Source: an uncultured Paracoccaceae bacterium (GTDB lineage Bacteria > Pseudomonadota > Alphaproteobacteria > Rhodobacterales > Rhodobacteraceae). Taken from it: a DNA stretch of 64,000 nt. The stretch spans positions 248,001 through 312,000 of the forward strand of contig CANKYO010000003.1 of the NCBI GenBank assembly GCA_947488175.1, read 5' to 3'. The notes beneath the pieces are model-generated. The model did no database searches. It had not been told where the DNA came from and saw only the letters and a list, made by a program, of their open reading frames with translations. This document shows, piece by piece, positions 53,735 to 61,281 of the stretch. Numbering within the stretch: position 1 is the stretch's first letter; each line of letters opens with the position of its first letter. A program made the position numbers and the translations under genes.

Positions 53735-55321
53735 CTATTGCTGGCATTGCGCCCAGTCTAAATCAAAGCGGTCGAGGTATTTGCGCAGGCGGTCGGCATC
53801 GTTTCGGCTGGATTTGGCGGCGCGCGACGCGGCAAAGAGCCTGCGACCCGCCGCGCTGATACTGGCGGATTGCTGGCAGACCCGGATCACGGCGGCCAGT
53901 TGCACGCGGTCAAATTCATCGATGTTTTGTGCGGCCTCGCCCAGATGTTCGGTCAGCAGTTGCATGTCCGGGTCGCGGCTGGCCTGCGTCCAGATGGATT
54001 GCAGCGTGGTGATTTCATCCTCGACCATGGCCAGCGTGATCCGCCCGCGCGGGGCGAGGGTACACATGCGTTGGACTGAGGCAGACAAATCGCGGAAATT
54101 GCCCGGCCAGAGCGTGCCGGGGTCGGTGGCAAACCTTTGATAGCGGGTAAAAGCGTCGGCGTTGAAGCTGACCTGCGTGCCCAGCAGCTTTTCGACGCGG
54201 GCCAGTTCGTATTCGAGGTTCGGGGCGATATCCTCGGGCCGGTCGCGCAGGGCGGGCAAGGCAAAGGTCCAGAGGTTGAGGCGCGCAAAAAGATCGGCGC
54301 GGAACCGGCCTTTGGCGACCTGGGCCGCCAGATCGCGCCCGGCCCCGGCGATCAGGTGGAACCGGCTGGTGACCTCGTAATCCGATCCAAGGGGGAAGTA
54401 TTTGCCGGTCTCGATCGCGTGCAGGATCATCGCCTGTTCGTCGAGGCCGAGTTCGTCGATTTCATCGAGAAACAGGACACCCCCATCCGCCTCTTGCAGC
54501 AGCCCGCGCCGGTCGGCGCCTGCGCCGGGGAGGGCTTGCCTGCGATGACCGAACAGGGTCGACATGGCCCGTTCGCCCTTGAGCGTCGAACAATTCACGT
54601 GCACCAGTCGCCCCTTGATCCGGCGGCGTTGCAGTTTGAGCTCGTACAGGCGCGCGGCCAGATCGGATTTGCCGGTGCCGGTCGGCCCCATCAGCAAAAG
54701 CGGAGCGTCGGAGTTGGAGGTCACCACCTCCATCCGGTCGATCATCGCGTTGAAGGCTGCGTTGCGCGTTTCGATTCCGCCTTTCAGCAGGGTGTTGTAT
54801 TCGCGGGTGACCAGATCGAACCGTTGCTGGATGGCGTTGTATTTCGACAGGTCCAGATCGACGACCTGCAGGGTGCCGGGGCCGATATCGTCGCCCCGTG
54901 GTGGCCCGGTCTGGACCAGCCTGGCCGGGATGTGCCGGGATTCGGTCAGGAGGAACCAGCAGATCTGGGCGACATGCGTGCCGGTCGTCAGATGGACGTG
55001 ATAGTCTTCGCGTTCGTCGTCGAACCCGTAATCACGTGCGAAATCATAGAGCGCGCCGTACATTTCCTCGAAATCCCAGGGGTCGACGATGTCGATCCGC
55101 TGCAGCAGGACCTCGGTCTGCGGGTTCTTGCGCGTCACCTCGCCCTTGATCATTTCGGCCAGACCACGCCAACGGCCGGAATAGATCAGCTCCAGCCGGT
55201 CAATGGGGAAATCGGGATGTTCGGCGATCTGGACCGACGGGCGCCAGCGCCGGCGTTTGCCCGCATCCAGATTCGTACCGAGAAAGCCGATGACCACGTT
55301 ATTCTTCATAATCTTATCCAT
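53735..55321 (-). CDS. rtcR: RtcR-type regulator of the RNA repair operon, with altered GAFTGA motif
   Basis: 528 residues. The N-terminal ~180 residues form the CARF-like ligand-binding domain (VVIGFLGTNLDAGKR, DYHVHLTTGTHVAQICWFLL). The AAA+ domain has Walker A GPTGTGKS at about residue 215 and Walker B GVLFLDEIDELG. An arginine finger is likely in RADLFARLN. The GAFTGA loop that normally contacts sigma-54 reads QALPGA, so Thr and Phe are lost. The C-terminal ~50 residues include a helix-turn-helix-like segment. RtcR senses RNA ends with 2',3'-cyclic phosphate in other species. It is divergent from rsr, which it probably controls. Confidence 0.88.
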   Translation of the reverse strand: MDKIMKNNVVIGFLGTNLDAGKRRRWRPSVQIAEHPDFPIDRLELIYSGRWRGLAEMIKGEVTRKNPQTEVLLQRIDIVDPWDFEEMYGALYDFARDYGFDDEREDYHVHLTTGTHVAQICWFLLTESRHIPARLVQTGPPRGDDIGPGTLQVVDLDLSKYNAIQQRFDLVTREYNTLLKGGIETRNAAFNAMIDRMEVVTSNSDAPLLLMGPTGTGKSDLAARLYELKLQRRRIKGRLVHVNCSTLKGERAMSTLFGHRRQALPGAGADRRGLLQEADGGVLFLDEIDELGLDEQAMILHAIETGKYFPLGSDYEVTSRFHLIAGAGRDLAAQVAKGRFRADLFARLNLWTFALPALRDRPEDIAPNLEYELARVEKLLGTQVSFNADAFTRYQRFATDPGTLWPGNFRDLSASVQRMCTLAPRGRITLAMVEDEITTLQSIWTQASRDPDMQLLTEHLGEAAQNIDEFDRVQLAAVIRVCQQSASISAAGRRLFAASRAAKSSRNDADRLRKYLDRFDLDWAQCQQ

Positions 55322-55355
55322 ACAGATAAGATACGATACATATCAATCGCTTTTC

Positions 55356-55370
55356 TGGCCGACTATTTCG
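55356..55370 (+). promoter_or_regulatory. Candidate sigma-54-like element upstream of rsr (weak)
   Basis: TGGCCGACTATTTCG has the GG of a -24 box and correct spacing, but the -12 dinucleotide is CG instead of GC. It is the only near match in the 165-bp divergent region. The poor match fits the loss of GAFTGA in RtcR, so it may be non-functional. Confidence 0.25.
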
Positions 55371-55486
55371 TTCTTCCAGAAATACTCAAATAAAAACAGC
55401 GTGTTACAGGATTTTCGTTTTTTCTTCGTCCGGCCGCGCAAATCAGCGAAAACAGCCTCACTGAAAGAGAGAAGGACAAGAGAGAA

Positions 55487-57043
55487 ATGGCAAACAAATC
55501 CGTGTTTGCATCGTTGAAGGGCCGGTTGCTTCCGGCGGCTTCTGCCAGGAACCTGGCGGGGGCACCGGCCTACACCTATTCCGATGCGCATGCCTTGGCG
55601 CAGCTGGCGATGACCGGCACGTTCGGGCAGACATTCTACCGGGACCCGATGCAGGAGTTGTCCCGCACGCTGGAACTGGCGCAAAAGGTTGATCCGTCCT
55701 TCCTTGCAAAGGCGGCGGTCTACACCCGGGCTGAAGGGCATATGAAGGATATGCCTGCGGTCCTGTTGGCGGTGCTTTCGGGCCGCGACCCGATCCTGTT
55801 CCAGCGCGTTTTCGGGCGTGTTGTGGATAGCGGGAAGATGCTGCGCACATTTGTGCAGATCATGCGGTCCGGGCAGACCGGGCGGAAATCGCTGGGATCT
55901 GCGCCAAAGCGGATGGTTGCGAATTGGCTGATCAATGCGTCCGACCGGGCGCTGTTACAGGCCAATGTGGGTAACGACCCGTCGCTGGCGGATGTGATCA
56001 GGATGGTCCACCCGAAGCCTGCGTCAAAGGCGCGTGAAGCGTTGTTTGCGTGGATCATCGGGAAACCGTGTGACGTGGCCTTGCTGCCGAAAAATGTGCA
56101 GGATTTCCTGCGGTTCAAGAAGACGGGCCGTGGCCGTGTGCCGGATGTGCCGTTCCAGATGCTGACGCAGCTTGAGCTGTCTACCAAGCAGTGGGCGGGG
56201 ATCGCTGAAAACGCATCCTGGCAGATGACCCGTATGAACCTCAACACGTTCCTGCGGCACGGTGTTCTGGCCCTGCCGAAGATGCGGCGCATGATCGCGG
56301 ATCGTTTGCGTGATCCGGATCTGATCGCCAAGGCACGGGTGTTCCCGTACCAGCTGATGACGGCCTACCAGGCCCTGTCAGCCGAGATGCCCGAGGAGAT
56401 CCGGGAGGCGTTGCATGACGCGATGGAGCTTTCGGTGCAAAACGTGCCAAAGCTGCGCGGTCAGGTGGTTGTCGCTCCGGATGTGTCCGGGTCCATGTCC
56501 GGCGCTGTGACCGGTTTCCGTAAGGGTGCCACAACAGCGACCCGGTTCGTGGATGTGGCCGGTCTGGTGTCTGCGGCTGTGCTGCGACGTAACCCGTCCG
56601 CGACGGTGCTGCCGTTCGAGGTGAAGGTGCGCGAGACGCGGCTGGAACCACGCGATACGATCCTGACAAACGCGGCGCGTTTGGCGGATCAGTGGGGCGG
56701 CGGGACCAACTGTGCGGCACCGCTGCAATGGTTGCTGAAGAAGGGGCGTGCCCCGGATCTGGTGATCATCGTCTCGGACAACCAGTCCTGGGCGCATAAC
56801 CAGTACGGCAATGCCGGGACGGTGATGATGCAAGCGTGGGAGAAGCTGAAACAGCGGAACCCGCAGGCCAAGCTGGTCTGTATCGACATCGCCCCGTACG
56901 GAACAACCCAGGCGAAAGAGCGTGCCGATGTGCTTAACATCGGCGGGTTCTCGGACAGTGTCTTTGACCAGATCGCCGCTTTTGCGAGTGGCGAGATGGG
57001 TCCGGACCACTGGGTTGGCCAGATCGAGGCCGTGGATGTTTAA
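55487..57043 (+). CDS. rsr: Ro60-family RNA-binding protein Rsr (TROVE + vWA)
   Basis: 518 residues, the usual Ro60 size. The TROVE ring of helical repeats covers about residues 15-320 (TGTFGQTFYRDPMQELSRTL, KAAVYTRAEGHMKDMPAVLL). The C-terminal vWA domain has an intact MIDAS: PDVSGSMSG at about residue 332, then GGTNCAAPLQWLL and VSDNQSW. Ro60 is a toroid that binds misfolded RNA ends in its cavity and Y RNAs on its outer face. It is the first gene of the operon containing the Y-RNA-like array 535 bp downstream. A GAGAGAAATGG start context and ATG at 55487 support the start. Confidence 0.95.
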   Translation: MANKSVFASLKGRLLPAASARNLAGAPAYTYSDAHALAQLAMTGTFGQTFYRDPMQELSRTLELAQKVDPSFLAKAAVYTRAEGHMKDMPAVLLAVLSGRDPILFQRVFGRVVDSGKMLRTFVQIMRSGQTGRKSLGSAPKRMVANWLINASDRALLQANVGNDPSLADVIRMVHPKPASKAREALFAWIIGKPCDVALLPKNVQDFLRFKKTGRGRVPDVPFQMLTQLELSTKQWAGIAENASWQMTRMNLNTFLRHGVLALPKMRRMIADRLRDPDLIAKARVFPYQLMTAYQALSAEMPEEIREALHDAMELSVQNVPKLRGQVVVAPDVSGSMSGAVTGFRKGATTATRFVDVAGLVSAAVLRRNPSATVLPFEVKVRETRLEPRDTILTNAARLADQWGGGTNCAAPLQWLLKKGRAPDLVIIVSDNQSWAHNQYGNAGTVMMQAWEKLKQRNPQAKLVCIDIAPYGTTQAKERADVLNIGGFSDSVFDQIAAFASGEMGPDHWVGQIEAVDV

Positions 57044-57089
57044 GAACGGGTCAGGCGTGTGCGCCTGACCCAACCGAAGGAACAAGAGA

Positions 57090-57563
57090 ATGACTGATTT
57101 TGTAACGGGCTGCACCCATTTCGGGCATGCCAATATCATCAAGTTGGCAAGCCGCCCGTTTGCGGATGTGGATGAGATGGACCGGACCCTGATCGCCAAC
57201 TGGAATGCGGTCGTGGGACCCCGGGACACGGTGTATCATCTGGGCGATTTCGCCTTTCGAGGCGGGCCGGGTGAGGAATATTTGAAACGCCTGAACGGTC
57301 GGATCATCCGCCTGCAGGGCAATCATGACCCCAATGGCTGGGGCGCGGATTACATGCGGGTCAAATGCAACAAGACCCGCGCGGTGCTGTTCCACTACCC
57401 GATTGAGGAGTGGGACGGCTGGTACAGAGGGGCGGTGCATCTGCACTGCCATACGCACAAACCTGATTTTGTTTCGGGGGAACGGCGTGGAAATGTGGGG
57501 GTTGATGCTACTGGTTTCGCCCCGATGAAATTGGAAGAGGCGGTCGCGAGACTGCTGGAATAG
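57090..57563 (+). CDS. Calcineurin-like metallophosphoesterase of the RNA repair operon
   Basis: 157 residues. All metal-site motifs of a small calcineurin-like phosphoesterase are present: TGCTHFGHANI (normally D-x-H, here C-T-H), YHLGDFAF, LQGNHD and LHCHTHKPD. The first motif has Thr/Cys in place of the usual Asp before the His, so metal A binding may differ. Its place between rsr and the Y-RNA array suggests action on RNA ends or cyclic phosphates, but the substrate is not proven. Ribosome site is GAAGGAACAAGAG upstream of the ATG. Confidence 0.85.
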   Translation: MTDFVTGCTHFGHANIIKLASRPFADVDEMDRTLIANWNAVVGPRDTVYHLGDFAFRGGPGEEYLKRLNGRIIRLQGNHDPNGWGADYMRVKCNKTRAVLFHYPIEEWDGWYRGAVHLHCHTHKPDFVSGERRGNVGVDATGFAPMKLEEAVARLLE

Positions 57564-57577
57564 AAAGGAATGACTGA

Positions 57578-57706
57578 CCCGGCGAATGCCGGTGGAACTA
57601 CAGGGATAGAGCGCCGGTCCGCACGGGCCGGAGGTCGCGGGTTCAACTCTCGCCATCATGCAGATGATGTAGCTCAGTTAACGTTTCACCCCCGCTTGTC
57701 GCCGGG
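57578..57706 (+). ncRNA. Y-RNA-like unit 1 with D-loop-opened (permuted) tRNA-Ala-like module
   Basis: Outer stem CCCGGCGA (57578-57585) pairs with TCGCCGGG (57699-57706). The inner stem GGTGGAAC pairs with GTTTCACC (57683-57690), and the arms carry AATGCC and CGCTTG. Between them lies a tRNA in permuted order. First come the D-loop 3' half with GG (GGGATAGAGC) and the anticodon arm (CCGGTCC-GCAC-GGGCCGG). Then come the T arm (GCGGG-TTCAACT-CTCGC) and the acceptor stem CATCAT/ATGATG capped by GCAG. Last is the D-arm 5' half, TAGCTCAGTT. The sequence resembles tRNA-Ala. Confidence 0.8.
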
Positions 57707-57722
57707 ACCGACATACAAACAC

Positions 57723-57820
57723 CTTGGCAAATGCCGATGGAACTACATCCAGGACGCGATGACGGTTCTGCTTGTAGATCACGGGCGCGTAAGCTGTTTC
57801 ATCAAACCCTTGTTGCTAAG
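57723..57820 (+). ncRNA. Y-RNA-like unit 2 with non-tRNA insert
   Basis: Outer stem CTTGGCAA (57723-57730) pairs with TTGCTAAG (57813-57820). Inner GATGGAAC (57736-57743) pairs with GTTTCATC (57796-57803). Relative to unit 1, the second base pair of the inner stem has changed from G-C to A-U. ATGCC and CCCTTG are conserved. The ~50-nt insert is not tRNA-like; ACGCG and CGCGT may close a hairpin. Confidence 0.75.
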
Positions 57821-57831
57821 ACCCGAAATCA

Positions 57832-57976
57832 CTGGCGAATGCCAAAGGAACTACATCGCACCAAAGCGGGATCACCCGAGGGTTCAACTCCCCTCTTGCG
57901 ACACGCCCAGACGGAAAACCATTTCTGCGGAAATGGGGGCGGGGCCCTGAAACTGTTTCTTTACTCTTGTCGCCAG
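57832..57976 (+). ncRNA. Y-RNA-like unit 3 with T-arm-like fragment and hairpins
   Basis: Outer stem CTGGCGA (57832-57838) pairs with TCGCCAG (57970-57976). Inner AAAGGAAC (57844-57851) pairs with GTTTCTTT (57955-57962), again with compensatory changes from units 1 and 2. The insert has a T-arm-like GAGGGTTCAACTCCCCTC, and a perfect hairpin CCATTTC-TGCG-GAAATGG (57919-57936) inside a CGCCC/GGGCG stem. No D arm is seen. Confidence 0.7.
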
Positions 57977-57986
57977 ACCCGAAAAT

Positions 57987-58104
57987 TCCGGCAAATGCTG
58001 GTGGAACTACATTCTTAATGTCGTGGTCGCGGGTTCGAGTCCCGCCCTGAAAGGGTAGCTCAGTTGGTAGAGCGCGAATGTTTCACTGTACCCTTGTTGC
58101 CGGA
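57987..58104 (+). ncRNA. Y-RNA-like unit 4 with YrlA-like tRNA module
   Basis: Outer stem TCCGGCAA (57987-57994) pairs with TTGCCGGA (58097-58104). The inner GGTGGAAC pairs with GTTTCACT. The stem continues into CATTC/GAATG, the position of the anticodon stem. The insert then has the T arm GCGGG-TTCGAGT-CCCGC and a short acceptor stem CCCT-GAA-AGGG. A D arm, GCTC-AGTTGGTA-GAGC, completes it. This is a tRNA fold whose anticodon stem runs into the Ro-binding stem. Confidence 0.8.
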
Positions 58105-58116
58105 CCCGAAACCAAA

Positions 58117-58246
58117 CCCTGGCGAATGCTGGTTGGAACTACATTACGAATGTCGAGGTCGTGGGTTCGAATCCCACCCCTGCTTCCATGGCAGGGTAGC
58201 TCAGCGGAGAGAGCGCGTAACGTTTCACCTTTTCTTGTCGCCGGGG
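58117..58246 (+). ncRNA. Y-RNA-like unit 5 with YrlA-like tRNA module
   Basis: Outer stem CCCTGGCGA (58117-58125) pairs with TCGCCGGGG (58238-58246). The inner GGTTGGAAC pairs with GTTTCACC with one bulge. TTACG/CGTAA takes the anticodon-stem place. The T arm is GTGGG-TTCGAAT-CCCAC, the acceptor CCCTGC-TTCCATG-GCAGGG, and the D arm GCTC-AGCGGAGA-GAGC. AATGTCG-(A/T)-GGTC precedes the T arm in both units 4 and 5. Confidence 0.8.
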
Positions 58247-58330
58247 TATCGGATCATCCCCTTGCGGGGCCAAATCGAGTGGTGCTAAAAATGTACCGCC
58301 CATGACGGCCCCGTTTGGGATCAAAACGGC
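58247..58330 (+). other. Spacer with two small hairpins
   Basis: CCCC-TTGC-GGGG (58258-58269 region) and CCGTTT-GGGATCA-AAACGG (58312-58330) lie between unit 5 and tRNA-Pro. No gene or Y-arm motif is present. They may be processing or stability elements. Confidence 0.4.
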
Positions 58331-58407
58331 CAGGGATTAGCTCAGTCTGGTAGAGTGCTGCATTCGGATTGCAGAGGCCGGAGGTTTAAATCCTCTATCC
58401 CTGACCA
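58331..58407 (+). tRNA. tRNA-Pro(CGG)-like, unusual
   Basis: A full cloverleaf with encoded CCA: acceptor CAGGGAT/ATCCCTG with discriminator A, D arm GCTC/GAGT, anticodon stem CTGCA/TGCAG with loop TTCGGAT, T arm GGAGG/CCTCT. The anticodon is CGG. Oddities: position 37 is A where proline tRNAs have G, and the T loop is TTTAAAT, lacking the near-universal C56. It may be a decoy or specialised tRNA rather than a housekeeping one. Confidence 0.75.
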
Positions 58408-58415
58408 CCCAAACC

Positions 58416-58479
58416 GGAGGAATGCTTGTGGGACTACATCTAGCCAAAATGTCAGCGTCTCACTGAACTCTTGTCCTCC
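58416..58479 (+). ncRNA. Y-RNA-like unit 6, minimal
   Basis: Only 64 nt: GGAGGA (58416-58421) pairs with TCCTCC (58474-58479) and GTGGGAC (58428-58434) pairs with GTCTCAC (58457-58463). ATGCTT and CTCTTG occupy the conserved positions. The loop is a 22-nt insert with no tRNA features. It lies between the tRNA-Pro and tRNA-Asn genes. Confidence 0.7.
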
Positions 58480-58484
58480 CCCAT

Positions 58485-58559
58485 TCGGCTGTAGCTCAGC
58501 GGCAGAGCGCCTGACTGTTAATCAGGATGTCGTAGGTTCGACCCCTACCAGCCGAGCCA
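58485..58559 (+). tRNA. tRNA-Asn(GUU)
   Basis: A regular cloverleaf: acceptor TCGGCTG/CAGCCGA, discriminator G, encoded CCA, D arm GCTC/GAGC, anticodon arm CCTGA-CTGTTAA-TCAGG (anticodon GTT, A37), T arm GTAGG-TTCGACC-CCTAC. All invariant loop bases are present. It is separated from tRNA-Gln by only 4 nt. Confidence 0.92.
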
Positions 58560-58563
58560 ATAT

Positions 58564-58639
58564 TGGAAGGTAGCTCAGTTGGTAGAGCAACGGTTTTTGG
58601 TACCGCAGGTCGTAGGTTCGAACCCTGCCCTTCCAGCCA
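58564..58639 (+). tRNA. tRNA-Gln(UUG)
   Basis: Cloverleaf: acceptor TGGAAGG/CCTTCCA, discriminator G, encoded CCA, D arm GCTC/GAGC, anticodon stem ACGGT/ACCGC with an A-C mismatch, loop TTTTGGT, T arm GTAGG-TTCGAAC-CCTGC. The anticodon is TTG. Position 37 is G where glutamine tRNAs usually have A. Confidence 0.85.
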
Positions 58640-58656
58640 AAGTTGAAGGGAAAACA

Positions 58657-58734
58657 TCCGGGGGAATGCCCGTGGGATTACATCGCACAAAATCGGTCGC
58701 CGAAAGGCATCTCACGATATCCTTGTCCCCCGGA
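58657..58734 (+). ncRNA. Y-RNA-like unit 7 with GNRA-capped insert
   Basis: TCCGGGGGA (58657-58665) pairs with TCCCCCGGA (58726-58734), nine perfect pairs. CGTGGGAT (58671-58678) pairs with ATCTCACG (58709-58716), with compensatory changes at both ends compared with the other units. ATGCC and CCTTG are conserved. The insert ends in GCC-GAAA-GGC, a GNRA tetraloop hairpin. Confidence 0.75.
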
Positions 58735-58737
58735 CCT

Positions 58738-58877
58738 ACGATTTGGAAATGCCTGCAGGATTACAGGTAGACGCAAGGCCCAAACGGGCTTGGGCCATCA
58801 GGCCCATGCTGGTTCAACCCCAGCCCGGAGCAATCCGGTGGCGGAAAATCATCCTGCAAACGCCTTGTTCCGGTCGT
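58738..58877 (+). ncRNA. Y-RNA-like unit 8 with D-loop-opened (permuted) tRNA-Leu-like module
   Basis: Stem ACGA/TCGT and TTGGAA/TTCCGG (one bulge) precede inner TGCAGGAT (58754-58761) pairing with ATCCTGCA (58851-58858). AATGCC and CGCCTTG are conserved. The insert is a permuted tRNA-Leu-like fold. First come D-loop GG with GGTAGACGC and an anticodon-like hairpin (GGCCCAA/TTGGGCC). Then come the variable arm, the T arm CTGG-TTCAACC-CCAG, and an acceptor stem CCGGA/TCCGG capped by a GCAA GNRA loop. Last is TGGCGGAA. The split falls at the same D-loop point as in unit 1. Confidence 0.75.
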
Positions 58878-58900
58878 GGTTTGATTTGAGAGTGAATGAG

Positions 58901-59320
58901 ATGAGACAGATTTTGGCATGCGCGACCTGTAAGACGGAGCTGACCTTTCCGATTTCCCCGATCGAGACAGCGGCGGAAATGCGAGCGATCTGCACCTTCG
59001 CACTTGAAAAGCCGGTCACACCGCGAGGCCGGTACTTGCTGATCGAAGGCGAGGTGCGAAAGATCCGCATGGCTTTCGCTAAAGGCTGGCAACCGCGCAG
59101 CAATGCGTGGATCAACTTGGACGATCTGCGCGATTGGATCGGCTATTCACCCCATCAGAAGCGGCTGAGTGGATGTTGCGATATTTCTGGCAGTGGCGAA
59201 CCCAATCGTATCTGCCATTGCGGCAAACATATCGGTTGGCACCACGCAGATTGCCACGAATGGCACCTTTTCGAGCCCGTAATGGATGCGACGTTCTGGA
59301 AAAAGACGAAAGACGAGTAA
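58901..59320 (+). CDS. Cys/His-rich small protein of the RNA repair operon
   Basis: 139 residues from the ATG at 58901; an in-frame GTG at 58892 is possible. The open frame extends upstream through Y-unit 8, which is RNA and not coding. Cysteine pairs CATC near the N-terminus, then SGCC, CHCG and a HIGWHHADCHEWH stretch near residues 100-130 suggest one or two zinc sites. I do not recognise the family. It lies between the RNA array and rtcB, with a 1-bp gap to the rtcB start, so it is probably part of the same system. Confidence 0.7.
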   Translation: MRQILACATCKTELTFPISPIETAAEMRAICTFALEKPVTPRGRYLLIEGEVRKIRMAFAKGWQPRSNAWINLDDLRDWIGYSPHQKRLSGCCDISGSGEPNRICHCGKHIGWHHADCHEWHLFEPVMDATFWKKTKDE

Positions 59321-59321
59321 A

Positions 59322-60734
59322 ATGACTGACGTAGAAATCACAGGTGAAACCCTGAAGGAATGGGGACACACCCCCGGCAAGGAGTTTGGCCGTGCGCTTG
59401 AAATCGCGCAGGCGGCTGCGGCTGCTGGGTATGAGTTGGACCAGATCAGGGCGAAGCTTGATACGATGAAGCCGCCGCCTCCTCCGCCCACGCTGCCGTT
59501 GCAGAAGGCGGGTGATGTGCCGTTTCATTTCAATATCGAAGCGTCAGATGATGCCGACGAGGTCAAGAACCTGGAGCAGGTGCGCGAAACGATGACGGCT
59601 GTCATCCGCACCCCCACTGTTGCGGCCGCCGCGGTGATGCCTGATGCCTGCCCTGCCGGCCCTGTCGGGACGATCCCGGTGGGCGCTGTTGTGGCGGCCC
59701 GCAATGCGATCCATCCGGGGATGCATTCGGCGGATATCTGTTGTTCCGTCATGATGACCGATATGGGCGAAGTTGACCCCAAAGCGGTGCTGGACGCCGC
59801 CGAAAAGGTCACGCATTTCGGGCCCGGCGGGCGGCCCAATGGCAAGCGGTTCACCATGTCGCAAAATCTGATGGATGAGTTCAGGGAAAACAGGTTTCTG
59901 AACAATCCCAAGGTTTTGCGCATGGCGGTTGAGCATCTGGGCACCCAAGGCGACGGCAACCACTTCCTGTTTGTGGGCCGGTCCCGCAAGACCGGGCGCA
60001 CGGCGATTGTGACCCACCACGGCTCTCGCGGGCCGGGGGCGGTGTTGTACAAGCTGGGGATGGAGGTGGCGGAGAAATACCGCAGGCGGCTGTCGCCCGT
60101 GACGCTGAAGCAGAATGCCTGGATCCCGGCGGATAGCGAGGATGGCCGCGAATACTGGGCCGCCCTGCAACTGATCCGTAAATGGACAAAGGCGAACCAT
60201 AACGCGATCCATCAGGCAACTGTCGAAGGGGCCAAGGGCCAGCCGGGCGACCGGTTCTGGAACGAGCACAATTTCGTCTTCAGGCGGGGTGATCTCTATT
60301 ACCACGGCAAGGGTGCGACCCCGGCCTGGGGCGACTATGCCCATGATGCGACCGGGCTGACGCTGATCCCGCTGAACATGGCGGAGCCTGTGCTGGTCGT
60401 GAAAGGCAAGGATGCGGATCATGCGCTGGGCTTTTCGCCGCACGGGGCGGGGCGCAATTTCTCGCGCTCTGAACACAAGCGGCGGCTGGGCGAGGTGACA
60501 CCGGAACAGGCGCTTGCCGCGGAAACGGCGGGCCTTGATATCCGCTTTCCCGCCGGTGCGGTGGATGCGTCTGAACTGCCGTCGTCCTACAAGAACGCGG
60601 CGTCGGTCGTGCGCCAGATCGACCAGTTCGGTCTGGCCGAGATCGACGATTACATCGATCCTTATGGCTGCATGATGGCCGGGGATATCCCGCCGTTCTG
60701 GATGGACAAGAAGAAAAGGAAGGGGCGGCGTTGA
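59322..60734 (+). CDS. rtcB: RtcB-family RNA ligase
   Basis: 470 residues from the ATG at 59322. The metal site is HPGMHSADICCSVMMT, where other RtcB proteins have GVDIGCG; the metal Asp and Cys are kept, but the glycines are changed. A second block is LGTQGDGNHFLF, then THHGSRGPGAVLYK. The nucleotide-accepting His is in GFSPHGAGRNFSRSEHKRRL. RtcB joins 3'-phosphate or 2',3'-cyclic phosphate to 5'-OH with GTP and Mn2+. The changed motif places it in a divergent subgroup. It likely acts with Rsr and the tRNA-like RNAs of this operon. Confidence 0.92.
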   Translation: MTDVEITGETLKEWGHTPGKEFGRALEIAQAAAAAGYELDQIRAKLDTMKPPPPPPTLPLQKAGDVPFHFNIEASDDADEVKNLEQVRETMTAVIRTPTVAAAAVMPDACPAGPVGTIPVGAVVAARNAIHPGMHSADICCSVMMTDMGEVDPKAVLDAAEKVTHFGPGGRPNGKRFTMSQNLMDEFRENRFLNNPKVLRMAVEHLGTQGDGNHFLFVGRSRKTGRTAIVTHHGSRGPGAVLYKLGMEVAEKYRRRLSPVTLKQNAWIPADSEDGREYWAALQLIRKWTKANHNAIHQATVEGAKGQPGDRFWNEHNFVFRRGDLYYHGKGATPAWGDYAHDATGLTLIPLNMAEPVLVVKGKDADHALGFSPHGAGRNFSRSEHKRRLGEVTPEQALAAETAGLDIRFPAGAVDASELPSSYKNAASVVRQIDQFGLAEIDDYIDPYGCMMAGDIPPFWMDKKKRKGRR

Positions 60735-60747
60735 GCCGCCCCCATGA

Positions 60748-61281
60748 ATGATGAAACAGGCAAGTAAATTTCTGAGCCTTGTGCTCCGCCATGACCCGGG
60801 AAAGATCGGGTTGGTTCTTGATCCCCAGGGATGGGTGGATGTTGACGATCTGCTGGCGGCCCTGGCACGCGCGAACAACGCCATGACGCGCGATACATTG
60901 TTTGAAATCGTCGCCACATCCGACAAGAAGCGGTTCAGCCTGTCTGATGACGGAAAGCGCATTCGTGCAGCGCAGGGTCATTCCGTGCAGGTGGATTTGG
61001 GGCTAACCCCCGTGACGCCGCCTGCGGTTCTGTTCCATGGGACGGCCAGTACATCCGTGGCGTCCATCATGAAGGACGGGCTGTTGCCCCGGGGCAGGCA
61101 GCAGGTACATCTGTCGGCGGATACCGACACTGCGAAGAAGGTTGGTATGCGCCATGGTAAGCCTGTGATCCTGCAGATCAAAGCAGGCCAGATGTCAAAG
61201 GATGGTCATTTATTCTTTCAGGCGGACAATGGTGTCTGGCTGACTGATCAGGTTCCAGCTACTTATCTGTCCTTCGATTGA
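60748..61281 (+). CDS. kptA: RNA 2'-phosphotransferase Tpt1/KptA
   Basis: 177 residues. The N-terminal domain has KFLSLVLRHDPGKIGL (catalytic Arg-His) and KKRFSLSDDGKRIRAAQGHS. The C-terminal NAD-binding domain has LFHGTASTSVASIMKDGLLP and RQQVHLSADTDTAKKVGMRH. Tpt1 removes an internal 2'-phosphate left by some RNA ligases, using NAD+. It is odd beside RtcB, which leaves no 2'-phosphate, so it may serve another ligation step or remove damage. It closes the operon. Confidence 0.93.
   Translation: MMKQASKFLSLVLRHDPGKIGLVLDPQGWVDVDDLLAALARANNAMTRDTLFEIVATSDKKRFSLSDDGKRIRAAQGHSVQVDLGLTPVTPPAVLFHGTASTSVASIMKDGLLPRGRQQVHLSADTDTAKKVGMRHGKPVILQIKAGQMSKDGHLFFQADNGVWLTDQVPATYLSFD

What the first reader, a model, noticed from the sequence alone, without database searches (positions are those of the whole stretch)
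57578..58877. A tandem array of eight Y-RNA-like units sharing a Ro-binding stem, embedded between rsr and rtcB
Each unit repeats the same two arms: 5' RAATGCY plus a GG(A/G)AC/T-TACA end, and 3' CTTGT before the closing stem. The pairs differ between units yet stay complementary: GGTGGAAC/GTTTCACC, GATGGAAC/GTTTCATC, AAAGGAAC/GTTTCTTT, CGTGGGAT/ATCTCACG, TGCAGGAT/ATCCTGCA. The arms resemble the bulged Ro60-binding stem of known Y RNAs, which also have CUUG on the 3' side. Known bacterial Rsr operons usually carry one or two Y RNAs, so eight with different inserts is unusual.
Basis: partly seen in the sequence, partly recalled or inferred. Interest (0 to 1): 0.95.

Follow-up and report, generated by a model that had tools for sequence, protein, structure and literature searches.

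The report
Eight Y RNAs interleaved with tRNA genes
Between two RNA-repair genes this bacterium carries eight different small-RNA units that share one stem predicted to bind the Ro60-like protein Rsr, with three tRNA genes of a non-housekeeping lineage packed among them, which together likely form a toolkit for coping with broken tRNAs.

Summary
Window 57579-58877 holds eight Y-RNA units. A covariance model built from 28 short units (two of them the window's) finds seven at E<=1.6e-7 and nothing else up to E 10 in the 64 kb; unit 8 appears at 3.3e-4 with filters off. Rfam YrlA passes its cut-off for one unit only.
They are not the housekeeping copies: array Asn, Gln and Pro tRNAs form a separate lineage shared by related arrays.
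All 26 Rhodobacteraceae loci examined have 2-8 units and 19 have tRNAs; multi-unit arrays also occur in other phyla. Eight is the top of the range, not unique.
Inserts are mixed: canonical YrlA tRNA mimics, two mimics cut in the D-loop (one tRNA-Leu-like), short hairpins, one further conserved module. RtcR here lacks GAFTGA, rsr lacks a sigma-54 promoter and the genome lacks RpoN, so control is likely rewired.
Best reading: a tRNA-damage operon giving Rsr several Y RNAs, plus spare tRNAs. Binding, expression and function are untested.

The parts
53735..55321 (-). rtcR, RNA-repair regulator (RtcR domain + AAA+); GAFTGA motif replaced by QALPGA; the true start may be the Met at 55309
   Evidence: PF06956 235.9 bits; NF038308 710.4 bits, cut-off 650; motif
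55315..55349 (.). conserved TATC/GATA inverted-repeat cluster, possibly the RtcR operator; no sigma-54 promoter found upstream of rsr
   Evidence: alignment of 26 upstream regions, 25 Rhodobacteraceae and L095; promoter scan
55487..57043 (+). rsr, Ro60 orthologue
   Evidence: vWA_Ro60 and partial TROVE; 2nvo E 3.3e-21; AlphaFold model pLDDT 83.6, Foldseek best 2nvo
57090..57563 (+). calcineurin-like phosphoesterase, an insertion seen here only
   Evidence: PF00149 E 5e-4, just under cut-off; no tblastn match in 61 related loci
57579..57708 (+). Y unit 1: tRNA-like insert cut in the D-loop, anticodon arm kept as a hairpin without a 7-nt loop
   Evidence: R1 36.2 bits; class; tRNA-Asp-like alignment; fold
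57724..57822 (+). Y unit 2: 52-nt insert, no clear tRNA-like parts
   Evidence: R1 39.4 bits
57832..57979 (+). Y unit 3: conserved module with a T-arm-like hairpin and CGCCCAGACGG-AAAA element
   Evidence: R1 34.1 bits; 16 other loci hold a match better than any window paralogue
57988..58106 (+). Y unit 4: canonical YrlA layout (T arm, closed acceptor, D arm)
   Evidence: RF02553 69.1 bits, over gathering score; R1 43 bits
58119..58247 (+). Y unit 5: canonical YrlA layout
   Evidence: RF02553 67.4 bits; R1 35.6 bits
58331..58407 (+). tRNA-Pro(CGG), array lineage, A37 instead of G37; only Pro-CGG gene among the 42 found
58415..58483 (+). Y unit 6: short hairpin type
   Evidence: R1 75.4 bits (one of the model's own rows)
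58485..58559 (+). tRNA-Asn(GTT), array lineage, second copy
58564..58639 (+). tRNA-Gln(TTG), array lineage, second copy with a different D arm
58659..58735 (+). Y unit 7: short hairpin type with GCCGAAAGGC hairpin
   Evidence: R1 63.7 bits (one of the model's own rows)
58742..58877 (+). Y unit 8: tRNA-Leu-like, cut in the D-loop, long variable arm, closed acceptor, no anticodon loop
   Evidence: R1 E 3.3e-4 with filters off, not found with default filters; 9-locus alignment with covariation
58901..59320 (+). small accessory ORF (139 aa), no family; match in 6 of 61 related loci
59322..60734 (+). rtcB, RNA ligase (divergent)
   Evidence: PF01139 119.2 bits; NCBIfam RtcB models far below cut-off
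60748..61281 (+). kptA/Tpt1 RNA 2'-phosphotransferase; match in 8 of 61 related loci
   Evidence: PF01885 168.7 bits

Best explanation
The locus is an rsr-rtcB RNA-repair gene cluster whose intergenic region encodes eight Y-RNA units with one shared stem predicted to bind Rsr, plus three tRNA genes of a non-housekeeping lineage; it likely works as a tRNA-damage response kit. Inferred mechanism: RtcR, whose CARF domain binds tRNA 5' fragments in Salmonella (PMC7790460, passages), would switch on one long transcript, which would be cut into Y RNAs, tRNAs and mRNAs. Each Y RNA would dock on the Rsr ring through the common stem and hold out a different module: two ordinary tRNA mimics (units 4, 5), two D-loop-permuted mimics without an anticodon loop (units 1, 8), short hairpins (6, 7), the unit-3 module and unit 2. 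By the D. radiodurans precedent some would tether an exoribonuclease such as PNPase to clear broken structured RNA, while RtcB and KptA repair what can be saved and the array tRNAs top up Pro, Asn and Gln decoding. Shown here: units, stems, module types, tRNAs and their separate lineage, old conserved slots, Ro60 fold of the model, absence of GAFTGA, of a sigma-54 promoter and of RpoN. Not shown: transcription, processing, binding, function.
For: Units and stems. Old slots: 120 of 120 Rhodobacteraceae units match best in another locus, 0 in their own (25 other loci offer more chances than one). Cluster: tblastn finds rtcR in 52 and rtcB in 51 of 61 related loci, some of the rest being cut by contig ends. 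One transcript: median gap between neighbours 15 nt, 101 of 129 gaps <=30 nt; no forward terminator-like site and no sigma-70-like site in 55300-59400 (1.7 promoter-like sites expected in shuffles, so weak). tRNAs: 35 in 20,859 bp of array against 0.18 expected at this genome's density, 19 of 26 loci; a housekeeping-type copy elsewhere in 10 of 10 genomes with array Asn and 12 of 12 with array Gln, among 18 genomes searched; cloverleaf kept through compensatory changes. Unit 8 family: 94.0% of cells paired, 6 pairs and 13 cells changed on both sides. Rsr.
Against: No expression or binding data. Rfam YrlA passes its cut-off for only one unit and lists nothing for units 7 and 8. The single-sequence fold of unit 8 does not recover the proposed structure. 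tRNAs are absent from 7 of 26 Rhodobacteraceae arrays and kptA from most loci, so neither is essential to the system. Array Pro has A37 in 10 of 10, odd for a decoding Pro tRNA. PNPase tethering is taken from other species. Whether RtcR still activates anything without GAFTGA is unknown.
Confidence: 0.6

Rival explanations
1. Decoy kit: the tRNA mimics and variant tRNAs are sponges that occupy anticodon nucleases or other tRNA-binding toxins, rather than adaptors for an exonuclease.
For: Mimics keep elbow and acceptor parts but I see no 7-nt anticodon loop in them; array tRNAs are a divergent lineage. A competitive-inhibitor role for YrlA is raised in PMC7790460 (passage).
Against: 9 of 11 array Asn and 9 of 13 Rhodobacteraceae array Gln copies keep the housekeeping anticodon-loop sequence, so would be cut by loop-recognising nucleases; short units have no tRNA part; the mimics keep the Rsr-type stem.
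Confidence: 0.2
2. Processing punctuation: the tRNAs serve mainly as RNase P/Z cut sites that free the neighbouring Y RNAs.
For: Spacers of 7, 5 and 4 nt at the Pro-unit 6, unit 6-Asn and Asn-Gln junctions; no forward terminator-like or sigma-70-like site inside.
Against: Most unit-unit junctions have no tRNA; 7 of 26 arrays have none at all; the Rhodobacteraceae array tRNAs keep whole anticodon arms and encoded CCA.
Confidence: 0.15
3. Permuted pre-tRNA genes: the units are matured by RtcB into working tRNAs, as recalled for permuted tRNA genes of red algae.
For: Permuted order of tRNA parts, next to an RNA ligase and KptA.
Against: I see no 7-nt anticodon loop in the window's units, though L010's permuted unit keeps a tRNA-Ile-like loop remnant; acceptor ends are closed by short loops without CCA; the outer stem is conserved as a unit.
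Confidence: 0.03
4. Debris: decayed tRNA pseudogenes spread by tandem duplication.
For: Many tRNA fragments; one Rfam tRNA hit (58049-58185) is a chimera across units 4 and 5.
Against: No sign of recent duplication (0 of 120 units match best in own locus); compensatory changes.
Confidence: 0.02

Closest known systems
YrlA/YrlB bacterial Y RNAs (Rfam RF02553; Salmonella rsr-yrlBA-rtcBA)
   Same: Ro-binding-type stem with 5' AAUGC and 3' CUUGU (Rfam consensus), tRNA-like insert, place between rsr and rtcB, rtcR next door
   Different: Eight units instead of two; two units cut in the D-loop with an anticodon-arm hairpin, one of them with a long variable arm; tRNA genes among the units; no sigma-54 promoter or GAFTGA
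RYPER (Rsr-Y RNA-PNPase, Deinococcus radiodurans; passages of PMC8394870 and PMC8058203)
   Same: Ro60 ring plus Y RNA with tRNA-like effector module
   Different: PNPase tethering not tested here; many modules; linked to RNA ligase and KptA
Anabaena trn operon (26 extra tRNAs; rtcB under the same repressor TrcR; passages of PMC10272220)
   Same: Non-housekeeping tRNA genes regulated together with RtcB under translational stress
   Different: No Y RNAs or Rsr in the passages read (terms Ro60 and Rsr: 0 occurrences); repressor TrcR, not RtcR; trn lies on a plasmid
NtrC proteins lacking GAFTGA (R. capsulatus, Caulobacter; passages of PMC10274813)
   Same: Alphaproteobacterial AAA+ activator that lost the sigma-54 loop; reported to act at sigma-70 promoters
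   Different: RtcR senses RNA ends; its use of another sigma factor is inferred only

Membership tests
bacterial Y RNA | long stem of paired 5' and 3' ends with conserved Ro-type sequence | tested here: met
bacterial Y RNA | encoded beside a Ro60 orthologue | tested here: met
bacterial Y RNA | at least one member with a tRNA-like domain (criterion recalled from Chen et al. 2014, not held) | tested here: met
   units 4 and 5
bacterial Y RNA | expressed and bound by Rsr | not testable with these tools
   no RNA-seq or binding data
YrlA (RF02553) | score over gathering cut-off of 69 bits | tested here: inconclusive
   unit 4 met (69.1); 5, 1, 6, 2, 3 below; 7 and 8 not listed
Ro60/Rsr | TROVE/vWA sequence and Ro60 fold | tested here: met
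   vWA_Ro60 61.1 bits, partial TROVE 34.9 bits; NF041674 only 75.5 of 900 bits, so divergent; Foldseek
sigma-54-dependent rtc operon | GAFTGA in RtcR | tested here: not met
   0 of 24 Rhodobacteraceae; G[AS][FY]TGA in 26 loci elsewhere
sigma-54-dependent rtc operon | -24/-12 promoter upstream of rsr | tested here: not met
   best score 14.5 of 21, shuffle p 0.435
sigma-54-dependent rtc operon | rpoN in the genome | tested here: not met
   PF04552: 0 matches; the same search rings in 4 of 14 control genomes
functional tRNA (array copies) | intact cloverleaf, CCA, anticodon | tested here: met
   Pro A37 is atypical
RYPER | PNPase tethered by the tRNA-like module | not testable with these tools
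   needs pull-down

The most novel reading that the evidence does not exclude
RNA-repair operons in this family are tRNA-damage kits that pair a library of Rsr-docked Y RNAs, including non-decoding D-loop-permuted tRNA mimics, with a dedicated lineage of emergency tRNAs, all under an RtcR that has left sigma-54 for another sigma factor. The same pairing of Y RNAs and tRNAs occurs in Myxococcota, Planctomycetota and Calditrichota.
Probability: 0.4. Interest if true: 0.88.

Novelty: new variant of a known kind. Interest (0 to 1): 0.74.

Why it matters
What Y RNAs do in RNA-repair operons is still open (PMC7790460 lists only possibilities). A natural set of eight with different modules on one handle lets the role of each module be tested in one strain. 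The embedded tRNA lineage suggests which tRNAs the system expects to lose (Pro, Asn, Gln), making its natural damage testable. The joint absence of GAFTGA and of the sigma-54 promoter is a clear case of an RNA-end-sensing regulator that appears to have changed sigma factor.

Tried and rejected
Isotype-specific mimicry: I first thought each unit copied a particular tRNA. For the 43 canonical-layout units tested, several isotypes tie or nearly tie; 19 of 43 exceed the 95% point of a profile-sampled null, but without a consistent winner (some low scores come from my regex cutting the D arm wrongly). Kept only for the Leu-like units, and weakly for unit 1 (Asp-like, 40.5 against shuffled mean 20.9, max 34.5).

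Permuted pre-tRNAs: rejected, no anticodon loop seen in the window's units. Sigma-54 control: rejected for this family. A phylum survey with Rfam YrlA was uninformative: 140 of 398 genomes match at E<=0.001 but only 4 pass the cut-off, and weak hits plausibly include tRNAs. No relative of Rsr in viral contigs. ARAGORN calls that overlap Y units were not counted as array tRNAs: L013 SeC, L036 Arg, L028 Leu, L099 Ala; L011 Asn lies inside rsr. Minus-strand tRNAs of L029 were not counted either. My strict detector found nothing in 12 loci; the covariance model finds units in 11 of these at E<=0.01, not in L046.

Papers: passages only of PMC7790460, PMC8394870, PMC9879122, PMC10272220, PMC10274813, PMC9569102, PMC8058203. 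Chen 2014, Sim and Wolin 2018, Wang 2018 and Burroughs and Aravind 2016 are not held, so prior mention of large arrays or of tRNAs among Y RNAs cannot be excluded; search listings 6, 11, 12, 29, 32, 62, 74 showed none.
Full report
WHAT IS THERE. Between rsr (55487-57043) and rtcB (59322-60734) lie eight Y-RNA units at 57579-58877. The 5' arm pattern AATGC-N2-7-GGRAYTACA occurs seven times in the window (0.00 expected) and seven times in the whole genome, all here (reversed control 1); unit 8 misses it by one base. A detector that asks for 5' arm, 3' CTTGT-like motif and pairing finds all eight, none on the minus strand of the 46 sequences then examined, and two in 2.8 Mb of shuffled sequence. 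A covariance model (R1) was built from 28 short units (A5), two of them the window's units 6 and 7. It finds seven units at E<=1.6e-7 and nothing else up to E 10 in 64 kb; with filters off unit 8 appears at 3.3e-4. In those 28 units, 8 of 11 pairs change on both sides; the rows had passed a pairing filter, which inflates the 100% paired but says less about the two-sided changes. Rfam YrlA reaches its cut-off for unit 4 only; at relaxed threshold it also lists units 5, 1, 6, 2, 3 but not 7 or 8, and lists a false match across the Asn and Gln tRNAs at 21.2 bits, as high as unit 3.

THREE tRNA GENES INSIDE. ARAGORN and Rfam find tRNA-Pro(CGG), Asn(GTT) and Gln(TTG) within the array. The Rfam search of the genome gives 42 tRNA genes, and ARAGORN names all 42 on the fetched stretches: a second, different Asn and Gln elsewhere, and Pro-GGG and Pro-TGG elsewhere; among the 42, Pro-CGG occurs only in the array. 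Of 18 related genomes searched, 10 of 10 with an array Asn and 12 of 12 with an array Gln also hold a housekeeping-type copy. Array copies resemble each other across genera and differ from their own genome's other copy: Asn has TCAGGATGTCG-type against TCAATTGGTCG-type sequence, and Gln has a GTAGCTCA..AGAGC-type D arm against GTAGCCAAGTGGTAAGGC-type. Both keep the cloverleaf with compensatory changes. Anticodon loops are the housekeeping ones in 9 of 11 array Asn and 9 of 13 Rhodobacteraceae array Gln copies. Array Pro has A37 in 10 of 10 Rhodobacteraceae; the two planctomycete array Pro tRNAs (L031, L039) and the housekeeping Pro copies listed have G37. That G37 is near-universal in Pro tRNAs is recalled. 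In 26 Rhodobacteraceae loci (the window and 25 others) there are 35 array tRNAs in 20,859 bp, against 0.18 expected at this genome's density; 19 loci have at least one and 7 have none.

MODULE TYPES. In 62 loci the strict detector found 175 units: 72 of canonical YrlA layout (T arm, closed acceptor, D arm), 43 short, 30 with a T arm only, 17 without a T motif, 10 D-loop-permuted and 3 with T arm plus the D-arm 5' half (a regex classification, approximate). In the window, units 4 and 5 are canonical. Unit 1 begins with the 3' half of a D arm, continues through an anticodon arm that folds as a 7-bp hairpin with a 4-nt loop, variable loop, T arm and closed acceptor, and ends with the 5' half of the D arm. 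Unit 8 has the same order but is tRNA-Leu-like: it holds GGTAGACGC near the start and TGGCGGAA near the end, a pair found together only in three of the four Leu tRNAs among the 42, and a long variable arm. Its family in nine loci has 94.0% of cells paired (33-44% when slid) and two-sided changes in the Ro-type stem, variable arm, T stem and acceptor; the D-stem pairs never vary and so say nothing. The minimum-free-energy fold of unit 8 alone does not recover this structure, so it rests on the comparison. Unit 3 is a further module, with 16 other loci holding a match better than any window paralogue. Units 6 and 7 are short. Unit 2 has no recognised tRNA part.

ARRAYS ARE OLD AND WIDESPREAD. 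All 26 Rhodobacteraceae loci have 2-8 units by the strict detector. All 120 units match best in another locus and none in their own (other loci are more numerous): slots look old, not recent tandem copies. Outside the family, model R1 at E<=0.01 finds at least one unit in 35 of 36 loci and at least two in 28, up to five (counted by hand). Tight mixing with tRNAs recurs in four of these 36: L031 runs Y-Y-Pro-Y-Leu-Y, L039 Y-Y-Pro-Y-Arg, L033 Phe and five Y, and L025 (Sandaracinaceae) has eleven tRNAs with two Y units before rsr and Thr and Gln after it. Rsr itself is not common: 15 of 295 genomes of the family sample and 7 of 385 of the class sample, own genome included, have a relative at E<=1e-50.

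REGULATION HAS CHANGED. RtcR here matches the RtcR equivalog model (710.4 bits, cut-off 650) but lacks GAFTGA, as do all 24 Rhodobacteraceae examined (this one included) and two other alphaproteobacteria (L170, L172); 26 loci elsewhere have G[AS][FY]TGA (two GAYTGA counted by eye, which the script marked 'no'). A sigma-54-like site within 260 bases upstream of rsr at shuffle p<=0.03 occurs in 24 of the 26 loci with the motif and 1 of the 26 without. This genome has no RpoN; 6 of 25 other Rhodobacteraceae genomes have it over the cut-off, yet their rsr genes also lack the promoter. A TATC/GATA repeat cluster near the rtcR start is conserved. NtrC of R. capsulatus is a precedent for an activator without GAFTGA reported to work with sigma-70 (passage of PMC10274813). 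That RtcR does so is inference.

HOW IT LIKELY WORKS. Tight packing (median gap 15 nt) and no forward terminator-like or sigma-70-like site (weak) suggest one transcript cut into parts. [quoted passage not shown] radiodurans a Y RNA tethers Rsr to PNPase (passages). I therefore infer a tRNA-damage operon: Y RNAs give the Rsr ring several adaptors, RtcB and KptA mend, and array tRNAs replace. Decoy and punctuation roles are live rivals, and the roles may combine.

NOVELTY. The units are members of the bacterial Y RNA kind. What I have not found described is the D-loop-permuted module, the dedicated tRNA lineage interleaved with Y RNAs, and the RtcR branch without GAFTGA and sigma-54 promoter. 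My searches cover open papers only, and the four most relevant papers are not held, so I rate it a new variant of a known kind.

Noticed in passing
L025 38-4459: Sandaracinaceae contig with eleven tRNA genes and two Y-RNA units directly before rsr, and Thr and Gln tRNAs after it: a far larger mixed tRNA/Y-RNA array.
   Followed up: partly
window 58049-58185: Rfam tRNA hit above its cut-off that joins the D arm of unit 4 to the T arm of unit 5; probably a side effect of tandem permuted mimics.
   Followed up: partly
window 57090-57563: Phosphoesterase gene between rsr and the array, with no tblastn match in the 61 related loci.
   Followed up: partly
L089 2619-2694: Array tRNA-Lys with U1-A72 and discriminator U73, unlike the Lys tRNAs seen elsewhere.
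   Followed up: no
window 58331-58407 and nine related arrays: Array Pro tRNAs carry A37 instead of G37; L009 also has C33.
   Followed up: partly
L010 7653: D-loop-permuted unit that still holds a CTGATAT stretch like the tRNA-Ile anticodon loop.
   Followed up: no
window 58901-59320: 139-aa ORF between array and rtcB, with a tblastn match in 6 of 61 related loci, no known family.
   Followed up: partly
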